From a virus, in IMG/VR virus record IMGVR_UViG_3300018080_000002, positions 1 through 64,000 of that record: DNA of 64,000 nucleotides. One strand, given 5' to 3'. Below the pieces are notes generated by a model. The model was not told where the DNA came from. It ran no database searches and saw only the letters and a list, made by a program, of their open reading frames with translations. Below, in pieces: positions 57,273 through 63,844 of this stretch. Made by a program: the position numbers and the translations under genes. Within the stretch, counting starts at the first letter, position 1. Each line of letters starts with the position of its first letter.

Positions 57273-57578
57273 ATGTATGTAAAGTTCGTTTTCGTACTCG
57301 TATGTTCCGTATTTTTGTTAGGTAGTAAGATCCCGAATAGAAAACCGGATGTTGTTTCACAAAGAGCTAAAATTTCTGACTACTATATTTATGATAAAAA
57401 ATCTCGGAAATGGATCTGGAAACCAGATTACTATGCTGCCGTTAGAAAAAAAATGGCTAAAAATAGGAAAAAATATCGGAAATTGCAGGCAAAAAAGAAA
57501 CCAGTTATCAAGAAAAAGCGAAAAGTTGAGCCGTTCATATATAGAGATGATCCTGTTATACAATACATATTAAAATAG
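57273..57578 (+). CDS. exported basic protein
   Basis: 101 aa. Hydrophobic signal (VKFVFVLVCSVFLLGS) followed by a very Lys-rich region (KKMAKNRKKYRKLQAKKKP). Could bind acidic surface polymers. Last gene before the RNA array. Confidence 0.6.
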   Translation: MYVKFVFVLVCSVFLLGSKIPNRKPDVVSQRAKISDYYIYDKKSRKWIWKPDYYAAVRKKMAKNRKKYRKLQAKKKPVIKKKRKVEPFIYRDDPVIQYILK

Positions 57579-57755: not shown

Positions 57756-57825
57756 GGTAGCGAGATGTAAGTGAGGGCTACTTCGGCCATTATGAAATTC
57801 CCCTTGCTGATTTGTTTCCGCTATC
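57756..57825 (+). ncRNA. Y RNA-like RNA, unit 1 (plain hairpin type)
   Basis: 70 nt. Closing helix GGTAGCG/CGCTATC (57756-57762 with 57819-57825), conserved 5' loop strand GAGATGTAAG, inner helix GTGAGGG/CCCCTTGC, and conserved 3' strand TGATTTGTTTCC. No tRNA-like insert; the apex is a short loop. This is the minimal Ro60-binding Y RNA shape, matching the other four units in layout. Confidence 0.65.
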
Positions 57826-57838
57826 ATAGTATTTGTAC

Positions 57839-57950
57839 TGACGAGATGTATGTGAGAGTTACTTCGTAAGTTCGACTCTTATCCCTCCCTCCATTCCATT
57901 ACGGGGGGGTTGTCCAGTGGGGACATTTCTCTTACAGTCTGTTTCCGTCA
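57839..57950 (+). ncRNA. Y RNA-like RNA, unit 2, with permuted tRNA-like domain
   Basis: Closing helix TGACG/CGTCA. Inner helix GTGAGAG with CTCTTAC. The insert is tRNA-like in permuted order: T arm first (GTAAG-TTCGACT-CTTAT, 57866-57882), then the acceptor 3' strand CCCTCCC, a connecting loop, the acceptor 5' strand GGGGGGG, then D arm GTCC-AGTGG-GGAC (57912-57924). The acceptor stem is thus closed by a loop and the anticodon arm is replaced by the Ro60-binding helix. Bacterial Y RNAs are known to carry tRNA-like domains. Confidence 0.75.
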
Positions 57951-57966
57951 TCAATCAGGTAAAATT

Positions 57967-58078
57967 TGCAGAGTAGTGTAGGTTAGAGATACTTCGTGTA
58001 ATGGTTACACATCTGACTCGAAATCGGACGTAGCGGTTCAAATCCGCAGTTTTCCTCTTACTGATTGTTCTCTCTGCA
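57967..58078 (+). ncRNA. Y RNA-like RNA, unit 3, with tRNA-like domain in normal order
   Basis: Closing helix TGCAGAG/CTCTGCA. The insert has D arm GTGT-AATGGTT-ACAC, anticodon arm TCTGA-CTCGAAA-TCGGA (anticodon CGA at 58019-58021) and T arm GCGG-TTCAAAT-CCGC. The acceptor stem is not convincingly paired, so it is tRNA-like rather than a working tRNA. Confidence 0.7.
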
Positions 58079-58093
58079 TTAACGATATTTGAT

Positions 58094-58229
58094 ATAGGCG
58101 CAGTGTAGATTATGCTTACTTCGCATTGAAAGCGGCGGGTCGTTGGTTCGAGTCCAACTCTGGGGGTTTCCCCAGATAGCTCAGTTGGTAGAGCAGCTTC
58201 GTATGGCATTATTGATTGTTCTCGTCTAT
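58094..58229 (+). ncRNA. Y RNA-like RNA, unit 4, with permuted tRNA-like domain
   Basis: 136 nt. Closing helix ATAGGCG/CGTCTAT. Insert order: anticodon 3' strand, T arm GTTGG-TTCGAGT-CCAAC (58142-58158), acceptor 3' TCTGGGG, 4-nt loop, acceptor 5' CCCCAGA (58170-58176), TA, D arm GCTC-AGTTGGTA-GAGC, anticodon 5' strand. The 7-bp acceptor stem is perfect. This is a textbook circularly permuted tRNA fold fused through its anticodon arm to the Y RNA stem. Confidence 0.8.
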
Positions 58230-58248: not shown

Positions 58249-58386
58249 AGAGCGTGATGTAGATTATAGACTTCCTTCGCATTTTAGCTCACTTGGTAGA
58301 GCACAAAAGTTAGAATTTTGAGGTAGCGGGTTCAATCCCCGCAAATGTGACCATTAGGTCGGGTCTTATTCGCCTGTTTCCGCTCT
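58249..58386 (+). ncRNA. Y RNA-like RNA, unit 5, with a complete tRNA cloverleaf
   Basis: 138 nt. Closing helix AGAGCG/CGCTCT, conserved 5' GTGATGTAG and 3' CTGTTTCC strands, and a helix AGACTT/GGGTCT leading into a full tRNA cloverleaf (58278-58350) attached by its acceptor end, unlike units 2 and 4. Followed by TTTTA. Confidence 0.7.
58278..58350 (+). tRNA. tRNA cloverleaf inside Y RNA unit 5 (anticodon UAG)
   Basis: Acceptor CGCATTT/AAATGTG (7 bp), D arm GCTC-ACTTGGTA-GAGC, anticodon arm CAAAA-GTTAGAA-TTTTG with UAG at 58311-58313, 5-nt variable loop, T arm GCGGG-TTCAATC-CCCGC, discriminator A. UAG would read CUA (Leu), but the class II variable arm of Leu tRNAs is missing. It may be a mimic or may be cut free; sequence alone cannot tell. 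Confidence 0.6.
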
Positions 58387-58407: not shown

Positions 58408-59127
58408 ATGCTTGTTGTTGATCAGAGTCAGTTTGATAGATTTTTTTCCATCCTAGAAAAACCCGAAAAAGATGAAGTATATTTTGTGTCTCTGTCAGCC
58501 AGAAACAAGTATTTGACTGATGAAGAACGCCAACGCTTTCGCCTTGGCAAAACGGAGATGTTTGGTCGGACCACTATCAAGGATTTTAACGATCTTCCAT
58601 ATATCGTGCGGAAGCTAGAGGGGTTCCTTGGCGCATATCGCACCAGGAGCGGTTTAGAGATCCCTGAGCAAGCGAGAGTGGTTTACATCAATGTCAACCC
58701 ATCCTCAACAATTAAGGCGTATACAGCCTTGACTAAGGATCTTAATGACGCTTTATTTCGTTGTCATCTCGGCACTTGTGATTACTCGATGTTCAAGTCT
58801 ATTGAGCGCAGGATTTTGAATCATGTCCAGAGATCCAGATCTCGGCAGGTTTTCGTAGATATTGATTTTGATAACGTATCGGAAACGCTTGTTAAGGTGT
58901 TTAGAGGTCGTATTAGAGATACCGAGAATTACTTGATACGAACGAAATCAGGTGTTCATGTTTTGATCAAAAAAGAGACTTTAACGAAAGATATCAAGCT
59001 TGGTGTGATCATTGAGAATTTCAATGATGAAGCTAAAACGAGCGGTGGAGAGGTCGAGATAAACCAGAACCAGATGGTTCCTATGCCGGGAACAATGCAA
59101 GCTGGTCATTTGGTTACGATCGAGTAA
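58408..59127 (+). CDS. possible primase-polymerase (AEP)-fold protein
   Basis: 239 aa. Residues 148-155 give VDIDFD, residues 180-188 KSGVHVLI, and the C-terminus MVPMPGTMQAGH. The order D-x-D, S-G-x-H, then P-G-(S/T)...G is that of archaeo-eukaryotic primase-type polymerases (metal Asp pair, nucleotide-binding His, and the end loop). The protein is small and lacks an attached helicase. Its place between the Y RNA array and Ro60 suggests an RNA-linked role, for example end-joining or nucleotide addition. Motif match by eye only. Confidence 0.5.
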   Translation: MLVVDQSQFDRFFSILEKPEKDEVYFVSLSARNKYLTDEERQRFRLGKTEMFGRTTIKDFNDLPYIVRKLEGFLGAYRTRSGLEIPEQARVVYINVNPSSTIKAYTALTKDLNDALFRCHLGTCDYSMFKSIERRILNHVQRSRSRQVFVDIDFDNVSETLVKVFRGRIRDTENYLIRTKSGVHVLIKKETLTKDIKLGVIIENFNDEAKTSGGEVEINQNQMVPMPGTMQAGHLVTIE

Positions 59128-59223: not shown

Positions 59224-60084
59224 ATGTTTAGATTAGCAATCATAGCTTTGTCGTTTTGCCTCTCCTGCTCGATGTTTGCCCGTACAAATGTTAAGACGTT
59301 CATGCCTGAAAATGACTTACATTTAGAGGATGATCTTTTTTCTCTATATGGTACTTCCGAACAAGAATTTTATGACGTTATCGAGGATGCTGAGAGGGTA
59401 TTTGCTCCTATCGTAGAAAGGCTTGGGGGTAGATTGTATATCTATAAAAAGTGGTATGATAGCACTGTTAATGCAATGACTTATAGACAAGGAGATTGGT
59501 GGATCATTGAAATGTATGGTGGTTTGGCTCGTAGACGAGAAATAACTAGAGATGGTTTTAACATGGTTCTTTGTCATGAGTTTGGTCATCAACTTGGAGG
59601 ATTCCCTTTCGTTCAAGATTGGGCTGCGGCTGAAGGTCAATCGGATTATTATGCGACTCATGCGTGTGCTAAACTGCTTTGGGCTAATGACGACAATTCT
59701 TGGACAAGACGCCAAATTCCCGCTTTTCCGAAGGGATTATGTGATAGGACTTGGAAGTCTCAAGCTGATCGTGATCTGTGCTACAGGAGCATGTTAGCGA
59801 GTAAATCGACAAATGATTTGCTGGCTGTTTTGAGTGGAGAGAGGGTTAATTATAATACGCCAGATCGATCTGTGGTTAGACGGACGAATACCAGTTATCC
59901 GAGAACTACTCAGTGTAGGCTGGATACCATGATGGCGGGAAGTGTCTGTGTAGCTCGCTGGAATCATGGAAGAATCCCGTCAACTGAAAGGAGTTCAGTT
60001 TATTATTTGTGTTCTACGGCTAGAGGTTATAGTATGGGGGTTAGACCGCGTTGTTGGTTTGCTCCTAGAATTGGGTTGCATTAG
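59224..60084 (+). CDS. secreted zinc metalloprotease
   Basis: 286 aa. Signal peptide (MFRLAIIALSFCLSCSMFA). Catalytic HEFGHQLGG (zinc His pair and Glu) near residue 118, and a downstream acidic segment EGQSDYYATHACAK that could give the third zinc ligand (gluzincin-like). The C-terminal third is Arg/Ser/Cys-rich and may bind a surface. Would act in the periplasm or outside. AGGAGGG precedes the ATG. Confidence 0.75.
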   Translation: MFRLAIIALSFCLSCSMFARTNVKTFMPENDLHLEDDLFSLYGTSEQEFYDVIEDAERVFAPIVERLGGRLYIYKKWYDSTVNAMTYRQGDWWIIEMYGGLARRREITRDGFNMVLCHEFGHQLGGFPFVQDWAAAEGQSDYYATHACAKLLWANDDNSWTRRQIPAFPKGLCDRTWKSQADRDLCYRSMLASKSTNDLLAVLSGERVNYNTPDRSVVRRTNTSYPRTTQCRLDTMMAGSVCVARWNHGRIPSTERSSVYYLCSTARGYSMGVRPRCWFAPRIGLH

Positions 60085-60295: not shown

Positions 60296-61876
60296 GTGTC
60301 AAGGTTTAATTCAACAGCAACTAAGGGGGTTCAGACTGTAAAAAATCACGGTGGAGCTGATTCGTACAAACTATCCAAGGAAGTAGAATTGTATTCGGTT
60401 GTTTGCAATAGTTTGATAACGGACAAGTATTACGAGAGTGGAGATAGTCAGCTCGCTAGAATCATAGAGTTGGTAAAAGACTGCGATCCAGTTTTTGTCG
60501 CTAACTTGGCATCCTATGCGCGTAACGAAATGAATTTGAGGACGGTTCCTGTGGTCTTGAGTACGTTGTTATGTAGGAATGTGGGTGGATCTGTAGCCAA
60601 AGATGCGGTTTTCAGGACGGTAAAACGTGCTGATGAAATCACTGAGGTTCTTGGTTATTTCGCTCAATTAAACAAAGACAATTGGAAAAAGATTAGCGAA
60701 AAAGGCCATATCAAGACTAAGAAAATGTCGAAATACTCTCACTCTTTAAAGAGAGGTATTGCGAAGGTATTTGAGTCTGGAAGGTTCGATCGATACCAAT
60801 TTTCTAAGTATAACAGGCAACGAGAATTTTCGTTCAAAGATGCTTTGTTTCTTTGCAATCCTAAGCCTCAGAACGATGAGATGGCTGAACTATTCAAGTT
60901 GATTGCGAGTGATGAATTGGGGTCTGCTGATACTTGGGAAGCTAAACAATCGGCTCTAGGTCAGGAGAATAAGGAGAAATCGGAGGATGAGGCGAAGGTA
61001 TCCAAGCTAGAGGTTTGGAAAGAGATGATTGCGAACAAAAAGCTTGGACACATGGCTTTGCTGAGAAACCTCAACAACATCCTTAAATGTAAGCCTGACT
61101 CTGCTTTTATGGATGATGTATGTCGAGAGCTGGTTCGTGGTGCTAAGAAAAGTAAGCAGTTTCCTTTTAGGTACTGGAGTGCCTATAAGACATTACAGAA
61201 AGATCATGGTCATCACTCAGATCCATTTCTGTTTCAGAAAGTATCTGATGCTCTGGAGCAGGCGATTAGGGATAGTATCAAGAGTATGAGTAAGTTTGAT
61301 GGAAATACTTTGATTGCCTGTGACGTTTCGGGATCGATGGTTACACCTGTTTCAGATAAGTCGATCATTCAAAATATCGATATAGGTTTGGTTCTTGGTT
61401 GTTTGTTAAAAAACGTTCAGAAACTAAATACTATTTTAGGTGTTTTCGGTGACGAATTTAAGATCATTACAGGTATCGGTAATGGGGTTTTGGCTGATGT
61501 CAGGAGTTCATTTGACTGGTCTCATAAAGTCGGTTGGTCGACTATGGGATACAAGGTCATTGAATACCTGAACAAAAGAAATTTGGATGTGAATCAGGTT
61601 CTTGTTTTCACTGACTGTCAGGTTTATGGATCTGCTGGAAATGGATACTACAGCAATGGTAATGAGATGGAGAGACAGTGGAGTATTTACAAGAGCAAGC
61701 ATCCTAATGCAAAGCTCTATATGTTCGATCTTTCTGGATATGGAAACGTGCCTCTAAGATTGGACAAAGGCGATGTTATTCATGTCGCTGGCTGGTCCGA
61801 TAGGATCTTTGAGGCGGTTGAGTATCTAAGAAAGGGATCTGATGCAGTAGATATGATTATGAACTATACTAGGTAA
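60296..61876 (+). CDS. rsr: Ro60 (TROVE/vWA) RNA-binding protein
   Basis: 526 aa, GTG start with CGGAGGT 7 nt upstream. The N-terminal TROVE region holds HEAT-like helices (FVANLASYARNEMNLRTVPV, ALFLCNPKP, MALLRNLNNILK, FPFRYWSAYKTL). The C-terminal vWA domain has the MIDAS motif D343-x-S345-x-S347 (ACDVSGSM) and FTDCQVYG (D440). Ro60 is a ring that binds misfolded RNA ends in its hole and Y RNA on its outside, and in bacteria links Y RNA to a nuclease. The Y RNA array 2 kb upstream supplies its partners. Length is close to bacterial Rsr (about 530 aa). tRNA genes follow. Confidence 0.9.
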   Translation: MSRFNSTATKGVQTVKNHGGADSYKLSKEVELYSVVCNSLITDKYYESGDSQLARIIELVKDCDPVFVANLASYARNEMNLRTVPVVLSTLLCRNVGGSVAKDAVFRTVKRADEITEVLGYFAQLNKDNWKKISEKGHIKTKKMSKYSHSLKRGIAKVFESGRFDRYQFSKYNRQREFSFKDALFLCNPKPQNDEMAELFKLIASDELGSADTWEAKQSALGQENKEKSEDEAKVSKLEVWKEMIANKKLGHMALLRNLNNILKCKPDSAFMDDVCRELVRGAKKSKQFPFRYWSAYKTLQKDHGHHSDPFLFQKVSDALEQAIRDSIKSMSKFDGNTLIACDVSGSMVTPVSDKSIIQNIDIGLVLGCLLKNVQKLNTILGVFGDEFKIITGIGNGVLADVRSSFDWSHKVGWSTMGYKVIEYLNKRNLDVNQVLVFTDCQVYGSAGNGYYSNGNEMERQWSIYKSKHPNAKLYMFDLSGYGNVPLRLDKGDVIHVAGWSDRIFEAVEYLRKGSDAVDMIMNYTR

Positions 61877-61916
61877 ATATAGCGACGATGTTAGAACATA
61901 GCATTGTCGCTATTTT

Positions 61917-61992
61917 GGGGTATGGGACTGCAAGGAGTGGTCACTGGCCTGTCACGCCAGAAATCAGGCGGGTTCAATTCCCGCATATCCCG
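61917..61992 (+). tRNA. tRNA-Asp(GUC)
   Basis: Acceptor GGGGTAT/ATATCCC, anticodon arm CTGGC-CTGTCAC-GCCAG, T arm GCGGG-TTCAATT-CCCGC, discriminator G. Confidence 0.85.
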
Positions 61993-61997
61993 TTTAC

Positions 61998-62069
61998 GCG
62001 GCTATAGGACAATGGCTAGTCCATCGGATTTTCAGTCCGGGCATCGGGGTTCGACTCCCCGTAGCCGTA
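61998..62069 (+). tRNA. tRNA-Glu(UUC)
   Basis: Acceptor GCGGCTA/TAGCCGT, D arm GGAC-GTCC, anticodon arm TCGGA-TTTTCAG-TCCGG, T arm CGGGG-TTCGACT-CCCCG. Confidence 0.9.
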
Positions 62070-62134
62070 TTTTGTATGACTGCTTCCGGTTTTTTTACGG
62101 AACCATATGTAGCAACGTTGGGAGAGTAAGGTTT

Positions 62135-62207
62135 GGAAGGGTAACTCAGTTGGTAGAGTGGCATCCTGATAAGGTGCTGGTCGATGGTTCAAGTCCATCC
62201 CTTTCCA
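62135..62207 (+). tRNA. tRNA-Ile(GAU)
   Basis: Acceptor GGAAGGG/CCTTTCC, anticodon arm GCATC-CTGATAA-GGTGC, T arm GATGG-TTCAAGT-CCATC. Confidence 0.9.
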
Positions 62208-62217
62208 CTTGTTTTAG

Positions 62218-62287
62218 GGGGCATCCTGTAGACGAGGTAACGCTCAAGTACGGGGGGATGTTGCGGGTTCGATCCCCGTGTGCTCCA
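62218..62287 (+). tRNA. degenerate tRNA-like gene
   Basis: Acceptor GGGGCAT/GTGCTCC and T arm GCGGG-TTCGATC-CCCGT are good, but no D or anticodon arm with U33 can be built between them; 70 nt. Probably a decayed tRNA or a tRNA mimic. Confidence 0.45.
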
Positions 62288-62296
62288 CTTGAATGA

Positions 62297-62368
62297 TGGG
62301 ATGTAGCTCAGTGGTAGAGCAAGCGGCTGTTAACCGCTAGGTCGCGGGTTCGATCCCCGCTTTCCCAG
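62297..62368 (+). tRNA. tRNA-Asn(GUU)
   Basis: T1 start, D arm GCTC-AGTGGTA-GAGC, anticodon arm AGCGG-CTGTTAA-CCGCT, T arm GCGGG-TTCGATC-CCCGC. One T-T mismatch in the acceptor stem. Confidence 0.85.
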
Positions 62369-62373
62369 CTTAA

Positions 62374-62446
62374 GCAACGGTAGCTCAGTCGGTAGAGCAC
62401 CAGACTGAAAATCTGGGTGTCGTTGGTTCAATTCCAACCCGTTGCA
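62374..62446 (+). tRNA. tRNA-Phe(GAA)
   Basis: Acceptor GCAACGG/CCGTTGC, anticodon arm CCAGA-CTGAAAA-TCTGG, T arm GTTGG-TTCAATT-CCAAC. Confidence 0.95.
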
Positions 62447-62456
62447 CTGGTTTTAA

Positions 62457-62529
62457 GGGTCATTAGTTCAGATGGTAGAACACGACACTTTTAATGTCGG
62501 GGTCGCTGGTTCAAGTCCAGCATGACTCA
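62457..62529 (+). tRNA. tRNA-Lys(UUU)
   Basis: Acceptor GGGTCAT/ATGACTC, anticodon arm CGACA-CTTTTAA-TGTCG, T arm GCTGG-TTCAAGT-CCAGC. Confidence 0.9.
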
Positions 62530-62538
62530 TTTGATTAT

Positions 62539-62611
62539 TGGGGTGTAGAGCAGTTGGTAGCTCAACAGTTTTTGATGCTGTCGGTCGCTGGTTCGAGTCC
62601 AGCCACCCCAG
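62539..62611 (+). tRNA. tRNA-Gln(UUG)
   Basis: Acceptor TGGGGTG/CACCCCA, D arm GAGC-GCTC, anticodon arm ACAGT-TTTTGAT-GCTGT, T arm GCTGG-TTCGAGT-CCAGC. Confidence 0.9.
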
Positions 62612-62730
62612 TTTTTAACTCATATGAGTCGAAAACTGCCCTAAAGTTATCGTTTAAAGACATTTTATGGGTAGTTTAGAGGTTGTTTGGGCTGTTAAAT
62701 ACAAATTGTGAGTATTTAGATGTTTTGTTT

Positions 62731-62804
62731 AGGGGAATAGCTCAGTTGGCTAGAGCGATAGATTCCAAATCTATAGGTCATGGGTTCGATCCCTATTTCC
62801 CCTG
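62731..62804 (+). tRNA. tRNA-Trp(CCA)
   Basis: Acceptor AGGGGAA/TTCCCCT, anticodon arm ATAGA-TTCCAAA-TCTAT, discriminator G. About 120 nt without a gene precede it; nothing seen there. Confidence 0.9.
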
Positions 62805-62863
62805 TTTGATTCGACACCGTTTGTAGGTTTGTCGGTGACTAAGTTTAAAAAACCTGCGCTTAT

Positions 62864-62937
62864 GGTGGGCTTATCTCAGTTGGTAGAGAGACGGGTTGTG
62901 ATCTCGTAGGTCGTGGGTTCGAGTCCCACAGTTCACC
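62864..62937 (+). tRNA. tRNA-His(GUG)
   Basis: Acceptor GTGGGCT/AGTTCAC with the extra G-1 opposite C73 that marks tRNA-His; anticodon arm ACGGG-TTGTGAT-CTCGT. Confidence 0.9.
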
Positions 62938-62948
62938 CTTTTTTATAT

Positions 62949-63022
62949 CGGGGTATAGCGCAGTCAGGTAGCGCACTTGCTTTGGGAGCAAGTGGTCATC
63001 CGTTCAAATCGGATTACCCCGA
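62949..63022 (+). tRNA. tRNA-Pro(UGG)
   Basis: Acceptor CGGGGTA/TACCCCG, anticodon arm CTTGC-TTTGGGA-GCAAG, T arm ATCCG-TTCAAAT-CGGAT. Confidence 0.95.
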
Positions 63023-63037
63023 CCATAAGATTGCTAC

Positions 63038-63103
63038 AGGCGTTGAAAGATCATTAATTTTTAGCCGACGACAGAGTGCTGAGATCCTTTGACGCCTTTT
63101 TAT
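63038..63103 (+). terminator. long-stem RNA hairpin ending in U-run
   Basis: 15-nt arms 63038-63052 and 63083-63097 pair at 14 positions (some G-U) around a 30-nt loop, then TTTATT. A terminator for the first tRNA block or a small RNA. Confidence 0.6.
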
Positions 63104-63229
63104 TGACATTCATTTTTACCAATGAGAAACTTGAATTTTAGGCTTTGTGTCTATTTATCTTTATTTTAGGCTTATGTATATGTTTTTAAGTTTGTACTCA
63201 AGTTTATATCTATCCTTACTCTATAAGAG

Positions 63230-63310
63230 TCAGGGGGTTGGTATGGTTTGATACGCTTATAGCATTGCATGAAAAACCCCTGATGTCTTAACCGATTTCA
63301 GGGGTTTTTT
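63230..63310 (+). promoter_or_regulatory. terminator with competing antiterminator before tRNA-Tyr
   Basis: Terminator: AAAACCCCTGA with TTCAGGGGTTTTTT (63272-63310). An earlier TCAGGGGGTT (63230-63239) can pair with the same AACCCCTGA arm and would prevent it. 63104-63229 is AT-rich with TTTTAGGCTT twice and no gene. Confidence 0.55.
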
Positions 63311-63317
63311 GATTTTT

Positions 63318-63408
63318 GGGGGAGCTGCGAAGATTGGCTGGTTTCGCATCGGATTGTAAATCCGGTCCCACAGGGTAAACGTTGTAGGTTCGAGTCCTAC
63401 CTCCCTCA
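63318..63408 (+). tRNA. tRNA-Tyr(GUA)
   Basis: Class II. Acceptor GGGGGAG/CTCCCTC, anticodon arm TCGGA-TTGTAAA-TCCGG, variable-arm hairpin CCC-ACA-GGG, T arm GTAGG-TTCGAGT-CCTAC. Confidence 0.9.
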
Positions 63409-63413
63409 CTTAT

Positions 63414-63487
63414 GGCTCAGTATCCCAATTGGTAGAGGAAGCTGGCTTAGACCCAGTTGGTTGTCAGTTCGAGTCTGACCTGAGCTA
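63414..63487 (+). tRNA. tRNA with anticodon UAG (Leu), short variable loop
   Basis: Acceptor GGCTCAG/CTGAGCT, anticodon arm GCTGG-CTTAGAC-CCAGT, variable loop only 5 nt, T arm GTCAG-TTCGAGT-CTGAC, A73. Bacterial Leu tRNAs normally have a long variable arm. Confidence 0.85.
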
Positions 63488-63497
63488 CTTGTTTTTT

Positions 63498-63572
63498 GGT
63501 CCCGTAGCCCAACTTGGTAGAGGCAATGGATTTAAAATCCATGAGTTATCAGTTCAAATCTGATCGGGACTA
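63498..63572 (+). tRNA. tRNA with anticodon UAA (Leu), short variable loop
   Basis: Acceptor GGTCCCG/CGGGACT, anticodon arm ATGGA-TTTAAAA-TCCAT, 5-nt variable loop, T arm ATCAG-TTCAAAT-CTGAT, A73. Shares the G1-U72 pair and D-arm style of the preceding tRNA. Confidence 0.85.
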
Positions 63573-63576
63573 CTCT

Positions 63577-63660
63577 GGAGGGATGGCCGAATGGTAAGGC
63601 TCTGGATTTGAAATCCAGTGGCGGGTAAAACCGATGGGGGTTCGATTCCCTCTCCCTCTG
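63577..63660 (+). tRNA. tRNA-Ser(UGA)
   Basis: Class II. Acceptor GGAGGGA/TCCCTCT, anticodon arm CTGGA-TTTGAAA-TCCAG, long variable arm, discriminator G. Confidence 0.9.
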
Positions 63661-63669
63661 CTTTTCTTT

Positions 63670-63755
63670 GGAGAGTTGCCCGAATGGTTAAGGGAGCACA
63701 TTGCTAATGTGTCGGTCTGAAATATGATCTCAGGGTTCGAGTCCCTGACTCTCCG
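63670..63755 (+). tRNA. tRNA-Ser(GCU)
   Basis: Class II. Acceptor GGAGAGT/ACTCTCC, anticodon arm GCACA-TTGCTAA-TGTGT, long variable arm, discriminator G. Confidence 0.9.
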
Positions 63756-63844
63756 TTTTTCTTCAAGTCTTTATTCAATTGATACAATTGCTGAAATGGA
63801 GGATAATGACAAAAAAGAATTTATGTCCAAATTGAGAGATAATA

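What the first reader, a model, noticed from the sequence alone, without database searches (positions are those of the whole stretch)
58249..58386. A full tRNA cloverleaf hung on a Y RNA by its acceptor end
Unit 5 carries a complete class I cloverleaf with all four arms and a UAG anticodon, in normal order, flanked by helix AGACTT/GGGTCT. Units 2 and 4 are joined through the anticodon arm instead. Either this is a recent capture of a tRNA by a Y RNA, a precursor cut by RNase P and RNase Z, or the ancestor of the permuted forms.
Basis: inference. Interest (0 to 1): 0.75.

Follow-up and report, generated by a model that had tools for sequence, protein, structure and literature searches.

The report
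Y RNA carrying a whole tRNA
A phage gene cluster makes small RNAs that should bind the Ro60-like ring protein encoded just downstream, and one of them carries a complete tRNA-shaped module attached by its acceptor end; the same design recurs in unrelated phages and a few bacteria, where annotation mistakes it for an ordinary tRNA gene.

Summary
At 58249-58386 a complete class I cloverleaf (Rfam tRNA 59.7 bits, anticodon UAG, encoded ACCA) sits in normal order inside a Y-RNA-like stem. It is the last of five such units upstream of a Ro60/TROVE gene (60296-61876). Units 2 and 4 are permuted YrlA-type and unit 1 has no tRNA part.

It is not a one-off. I found 13 further units with the same plan: 12 in phage records (two in the gut phage csAssE-Sib, annotated there as tRNA-Tyr and tRNA-Lys) and one in a Saprospiraceae genome. 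Their acceptor stems covary (87/98 positions paired; shuffled mean 49, maximum 73). A shorter un-permuted form is common in bacterial Ro loci.

The acceptor stems of these modules hold 1.3 G-C pairs against 3.8 in 115 ordinary tRNAs of the same loci (p=4e-10); their T arms do not differ. Most lack CCA. In unit 5 the acceptor can stack continuously on the Y stem. I therefore read it as a Ro-bound tRNA mimic that keeps the tRNA elbow, not a pre-tRNA or recent capture; release of a tRNA is not excluded without RNA data.

New variant of a known kind (bacterial Y RNA with tRNA-like module).

The parts
58249..58386 (+). Unit 5: Y-RNA-like RNA holding a complete normal-order cloverleaf
58278..58353 (+). 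tRNA-like module of unit 5 (7-bp acceptor, D, anticodon UAG, T arm, A73, encoded CCA)
   Evidence: ARAGORN, Rfam RF00005 59.7 bits, arm parse
58268..58273 (+). 5' strand of inner Y helix (AGACUU)
   Evidence: sequence; constrained fold
58361..58366 (+). 3' strand of inner Y helix (GGGUCU)
   Evidence: sequence; constrained fold
58249..58254 (+). outer Y stem, 5' strand (AGAGCG)
58381..58386 (+). outer Y stem, 3' strand (CGCUCU)
57758..57823 (+). Unit 1: Y-RNA-like stem with no tRNA module
57839..57950 (+). Unit 2: Y RNA with permuted tRNA-like module (T arm, acceptor, D arm)
   Evidence: sequence
57967..58078 (+). Unit 3: Y RNA with un-permuted module (D, anticodon CGA, T) lacking a proper acceptor stem
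58094..58229 (+). Unit 4: Y RNA with permuted YrlA-type module
   Evidence: Rfam RF02553 39.4 bits, E 5e-07, below gathering score 69
60296..61876 (+). Ro60/TROVE protein, 526 aa, with vWA motif DVSGSM
   Evidence: Pfam TROVE E 5.8e-18; PDB 9l5y/9kop E 4.8e-30 and Xenopus Ro 1yvp; alignment

Best explanation
Unit 5 is a Y RNA of the phage's own Ro60 protein. Its effector end is a complete, un-permuted tRNA-like module joined to the Y stem by the acceptor arm. The RNA is most likely kept whole: Ro holds the lower stem, and the module displays a tRNA elbow (D/T loops), here also with an anticodon arm, to tRNA-binding partners, so it acts as a tRNA mimic or tether and perhaps a gate on the Ro cavity. 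It belongs to a recurrent second architecture of tRNA-bearing Y RNAs beside the permuted YrlA. Shown here: anatomy, Ro neighbourhood, recurrence, covariation. Inferred: Ro binding, persistence as one RNA, mimic function.
For: Array of five units directly upstream of a TROVE gene. The motif UACUUC just above the inner stem is shared by Y units of many Ro loci (variant ACUUCCUUCG in unit 5). Fourteen acceptor-joined units with a full or nearly full acceptor; acceptor 87/98 pairs against a shuffled mean of 49.2 and maximum of 73 in 2000, with several pair types at every position. Over the 56 normal-order units that were parsed, Y-arm pairing averages 13.8 against 10.3 +/- 1.9 when arms are exchanged between units. 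Acceptor GC pairs 1.29 against 3.81 in 115 ordinary tRNAs of the same loci (p 4e-10) and anticodon-stem GC pairs 0.93 against 2.44 (p 1e-6), while T arms do not differ (3.29 against 3.54, p 0.34): the elbow is held, the ends are relaxed. CCA present in 2 of 14. In the constrained fold CCU 58274-58276 pairs with AGG and U58277 with A58350, so acceptor and Y stem form one continuous 5' strand with CCA in a bulge. Sister units with 3-5 bp acceptors, or permuted, cannot yield a tRNA.
Against: No RNA, binding or expression data. Unit 5 itself has a 7-bp acceptor, A73, encoded CCA and U33, all that a tRNA needs by sequence, and folds as a cloverleaf by itself. U33 is kept in 12 of 14 acceptor-joined modules. 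Ro binding of these phage stems is assumed from neighbourhood and resemblance to described Y RNAs. Pairing of unit 5's own flanks is only modestly better than shuffles (p 0.03) and not significant in a cruder test over all tRNAs (p 0.16).
Confidence: 0.72

Rival explanations
1. Precursor: RNase P and a 3' processing enzyme excise a working tRNA (anticodon UAG) from unit 5; the Y arms are leader and trailer, and the tRNA may serve as a cutting mark within the Y array.
For: 7-bp acceptor, A73 and encoded CCA; one other member also has ACCA (L212); strong cloverleaf; no terminator or promoter pattern clearly separates the units, so processing of a long transcript is likely.
Against: The phage already has a tRNA-Leu(UAG) at 63414-63488. 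Most members lack CCA, acceptor GC content differs strongly from ordinary tRNAs of the same loci, and sister units in the same arrays cannot release a tRNA. Pairing of leader with trailer across -1/73 should hinder RNase P (inference and general knowledge of RNase P).
Confidence: 0.17
2. Chance: an ordinary tRNA gene that happens to lie between two pairing stretches.
For: Flank pairing of unit 5 taken alone is weak (p 0.03-0.16). Chance cases exist: in the ordinary tRNAs of L316 and L319 the same motif precedes the tRNA and no Y arms are visible.
Against: Same motif, spacing and double stem in 13 further units, most of them near Ro genes; it lies in an array with four other Y units; its acceptor is weaker than those of all 15 ordinary tRNAs of this window (2 against 3-5 GC pairs).
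Confidence: 0.03
3. Recent capture of a resident tRNA by a Y RNA, still on its way to decay or permutation.
For: Well-kept cloverleaf with CCA in unit 5.
Against: No resident tRNA is close (best 65%, Lys); the best match in annotated phages covers 75% of it at 83% identity, in Vibrio phages; the same plan occurs in distant phages and a bacterium.
Confidence: 0.06

Closest known systems
YrlA bacterial Y RNA (Rfam RF02553; Chen et al. 2014 RNA 20:1715, Wang et al. 2018, cited in PMC8394870)
   Same: Y stem beside a Ro60 gene and a tRNA-like domain with D, T and acceptor arms; units 2 and 4 are of this kind
   Different: YrlA has the order T arm - acceptor - D arm and lacks the anticodon arm; unit 5 has the normal order with anticodon arm and joins through the acceptor. 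RF02553 does not hit unit 5 even at E<=10, while RF00005 does
Y RNA and Rsr of Deinococcus radiodurans (RYPER with PNPase; Chen et al. 2013, cited in PMC8394870 and PMC7790460)
   Same: Ro60-like protein with a partner RNA encoded beside it; presumed tether function
   Different: No tRNA cloverleaf is described for that RNA in the texts read; PNPase partnership not tested for this phage
tmRNA and permuted tmRNA
   Same: Stable RNAs with a tRNA module built into a larger molecule
   Different: Unit 5 has a whole tRNA with anticodon arm and no visible tag reading frame; Rfam tmRNA gave only a 6-bit match in this array, inside unit 4
Phage tRNA genes and pre-tRNAs
   Same: Same cloverleaf; encoded CCA in unit 5
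   Different: Flanked by Y arms; weak acceptor and anticodon stems

Membership tests
Bacterial/phage Y RNA | Encoded beside a Ro60 (TROVE) gene | tested here: met
   TROVE ORF 60296-61876, 1.9 kb downstream, Pfam E 5.8e-18
Bacterial/phage Y RNA | Long stem formed by 5' and 3' ends | tested here: met
   Outer 6 bp plus inner 6 bp; E -18.0, p 0.03 against shuffles; class-wide pairing above an exchange control
Bacterial/phage Y RNA | Binds Ro60 | not testable with these tools
   Needs EMSA or co-purification
YrlA (RF02553) | Permuted tRNA-like domain (T arm, acceptor, D arm), no anticodon arm | tested here: not met
   Unit 5 runs D, anticodon, T with acceptor outside; no RF02553 hit at E<=10
YrlA (RF02553) | Score above Rfam gathering threshold (69 bits) | tested here: not met
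   Unit 4, the best in the genome, scores 39.4; unit 5 has no match
tRNA gene | Cloverleaf with 7-bp acceptor, 7-nt anticodon loop with U33, T and D loops | tested here: met
   RF00005 59.7 bits; arms
tRNA gene | Identity elements of a bacterial tRNA-Leu (class II long variable arm) | tested here: inconclusive
   Variable loop is 5 nt; but the phage's other Leu tRNAs (63414, 63498) also have short variable loops
tRNA gene | Released by RNase P / 3' processing, CCA-ended, charged | not testable with these tools
   Needs RACE, tRNA-seq, in vitro RNase P assay

The most novel reading that the evidence does not exclude
Acceptor-joined Y RNAs are Ro-tethered whole-tRNA decoys or sensors: because they keep an anticodon arm that YrlA lacks, they could be cut by host anticodon nucleases in place of real tRNAs, with Ro at hand to handle the broken RNA. 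A related idea was put forward for YrlA as a competitive inhibitor of a tRNA nuclease (PMC7790460).
Probability: 0.12. Interest if true: 0.8.

Novelty: new variant of a known kind. Interest (0 to 1): 0.58.

Why it matters
The role of the tRNA-like part of bacterial Y RNAs is open. If the module can be attached by its anticodon arm or by its acceptor arm, what is conserved (the D/T elbow) can be told apart from what is not (acceptor end, CCA, anticodon), which narrows what the partner must recognise. It also means that some tRNA genes annotated in phage and bacterial genomes near Ro genes are parts of Y RNAs, for example tRNA-Tyr and tRNA-Lys of phage csAssE-Sib. A short un-permuted form is common enough in culturable Bacteroidota and Verrucomicrobiota to be tested directly.

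Tried and rejected
Minimum-free-energy folding as proof: inconclusive, since an alternative fold is 1.1 kcal/mol better. Unrestricted flank-duplex test over 843 tRNAs: no power, dominated by GC-rich loci; 11 observed below the 1% null against 8.4 expected; its first version timed out. First regex scans of ACTTC gave many chance stems; control pentamers showed that loose stem criteria alone are not specific, so I relied on fixed spacing, covariation and exchange controls. Patterns for close relatives of unit 5 in viral contigs gave only coding-sequence chance hits (L330, L331). MAFFT alignments of acceptor-joined units put the 3' Y arms out of register, so no covariance model was built. Blast of the array against phages found only ordinary tRNA-Asp. 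RtcB not found in the own genome; T4 RNA ligase search uninformative because no control rang. Key papers (Chen 2014; Sim and Wolin 2018; Wang 2018; Sim 2020; Chen 2013) are not held, so I cannot exclude that un-permuted forms were noted there.

Full report
What is there. Between an ORF ending at 57578 and one starting at 58408 lie five RNA units on the + strand, followed 1.9 kb downstream by a 526-aa TROVE/Ro60 protein (60296-61876; Pfam E 5.8e-18; PDB TROVE chains E 4.8e-30 and Xenopus Ro60 E 1.2e-11) and by an ordinary tRNA cluster (61916-63756). The record is a 157-kb IMG/VR virus contig.

Unit 5. ARAGORN and Rfam find a full tRNA at 58278-58353. By direct reading: acceptor CGCAUUU/AAAUGUG, U8-A9, D arm GCUC-ACUUGGUA-GAGC, anticodon arm CAAAA-GUUAGAA-UUUUG, variable loop AGGUA, T arm GCGGG-UUCAAUC-CCCGC, A73, CCA. 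It lies inside an inner helix AGACUU/GGGUCU and an outer stem AGAGCG/CGCUCU. Alone it folds as the cloverleaf. Within the unit, cloverleaf plus Y stem is at -39.7 and the free minimum at -40.8 kcal/mol. In the constrained fold the 5' strand runs without a break from the Y helix through CCU (paired with AGG) and U-1 (paired with A73) into the acceptor, and CCA lies in a bulge.

The other units. Unit 1 has no tRNA part. Units 2 and 4 have T arm, acceptor, D arm in that order; Rfam's YrlA model matches unit 4 at 39.4 bits, E 5e-07, below its gathering score. Unit 3 is un-permuted like unit 5 but its acceptor is only a few pairs. So two of the five units are un-permuted.

Recurrence. The sequence UACUUC(G) just above the inner stem is shared by Y units in other Ro loci. 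I collected 160 phage Ro loci by two alignment-guided scans, two by a single-protein scan, eight annotated phage regions and 80 bacterial Ro loci and parsed units around ACTTC. The reversed sequences gave 1 permuted and 1 normal-order hit against 209 and 67. A stricter parse with both Y stems gives, per set: bacteria (80 loci) 44 loci with permuted units, 16 with a short un-permuted form, 2 with the acceptor-joined form, 1 with the form of unit 3; phage set 1 (82 loci) 38, 1, 3, 1; phage set 2 (80 loci) 19, 6, 4, 3. These are minimum counts and the sets overlap partly. DNA patterns added L311, L314, L317, L318.

The acceptor-joined class. Fourteen units have the full plan: window unit 5; L212, L223, L175, L222, L317, L311, L314, L318, L037, L162 (phage contigs); two in phage csAssE-Sib (L007); one in a Saprospiraceae genome (L236). 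L222, L223 and L317 are near relatives. Seven have all 7 acceptor pairs in that parse and five have 6; L314 was parsed one base out of register (by eye 7 pairs) and the second csAssE unit has only 4. Together 87 of 98 acceptor positions pair, against a mean of 49.2 and a maximum of 73 in 2000 shuffles of the 3' strands, with several pair types at every position. Across the 56 parsed normal-order units the Y arms also pair better (13.8) than exchanged arms (10.3, sd 1.9). These are therefore single RNAs with two selected parts, not tRNA genes beside chance hairpins. In csAssE-Sib the two modules are annotated as tRNA-Tyr and tRNA-Lys.

Mimic or precursor. Three results favour a mimic. First, the acceptor stems have 1.29 G-C pairs on average against 3.81 in 115 ordinary tRNAs of the same loci (p 4e-10), and in this window 2 against 3-5 for all fifteen; anticodon stems show the same (0.93 against 2.44), T arms do not (3.29 against 3.54, p 0.34). 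Second, CCA is present in only 2 of 14 (unit 5 and L212); 19 of 115 ordinary tRNAs encode it, so CCA alone does not discriminate. Third, the same arrays hold permuted units and units with 3-5 bp acceptors, which cannot give a tRNA. Against: U33 is kept in 12 of 14, and unit 5 has every sequence feature of a tRNA. Without RNA data release cannot be excluded.

Capture. The module of unit 5 is no closer to a resident tRNA (best Lys, 65%) than resident tRNAs are to one another (mean 55%, maximum 73%), so nothing marks it as recent. No direction between permuted and normal forms was established.

Mechanism. Known (from cited reviews): Y RNAs bind Ro60-like rings by the basal stem; in D. radiodurans the RNA tethers Ro to PNPase; YrlA's tRNA-like domain is a substrate of DusA and TruB (PMC8394870). 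In a Listeria phage a Ro-like gene lies within 2 kb downstream of abundant non-coding RNAs, which the authors suggest may be Y RNAs (PMC12282133). Inferred here: unit 5 is bound by the phage Ro at its base and shows a tRNA elbow, with or without a role for the anticodon arm, to a tRNA-binding partner.

Novelty. Rfam holds only the permuted YrlA; un-permuted units are scored as plain tRNA. No text I could read describes an acceptor-joined form, but the main papers are not held, so priority is unsettled. I call it a new variant of a known kind.

Noticed in passing
L232, L237, L240, L249, L259, L278, L284, L286, L302, L305 (bacterial Ro loci); L154, L168, L222, L223, L230 (phage): Short un-permuted Y RNAs: UACUUCG-UA-D-anticodon-T with an acceptor of about 4 bp (UUCG/CGAR; varied as UUCU/AGAA in L223 5646 and UUCA/UGAA in L058), often followed by an extra hairpin after the T arm that could itself act as a closed acceptor, i.e. 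a different permutation opened between positions 7 and 8.
   Followed up: partly
window 57986-58057; L025, L212 748, L227, L294: Units in normal order where UACU of the motif pairs with AGUA after the T arm and the Y stem replaces the acceptor; in L294 and L025 it is a near-continuous helix.
   Followed up: partly
all classes; window and most Ro loci: The motif UACUUCG just above the inner Y stem is conserved even in units without any tRNA part; its role is unknown.
   Followed up: partly
window 63414-63488 and 63498-63573: Both ordinary tRNA-Leu genes (UAG, UAA) have short variable loops although bacterial tRNA-Leu normally has a long arm; the Ser and Tyr genes of the same cluster do have long arms.
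   Followed up: no
OR575929 (csAssE-Sib) 72756-72828 and 72901-72974: Annotated tRNA-Tyr and tRNA-Lys are the cloverleaf parts of two acceptor-joined Y RNAs just upstream of a gene annotated Ro sixty-related protein.
   Followed up: yes
acceptor-joined units L175, L222, L223, L317, L314, L318, L212, L311: Anticodon loops tend to hold GG (UGG, AGG, CAGG, UAGG, UUGGU); no explanation.
   Followed up: no
window 59224-60084: ORF between the Y array and Ro has a signal-like start and a CHEFGHQLG metalloprotease motif; no Pfam hit.
   Followed up: no
L037 7112-7267 and 7488-7631: Rfam's tRNA model places 144-156-nt tRNAs here, apparently bridging two neighbouring permuted units.
   Followed up: no
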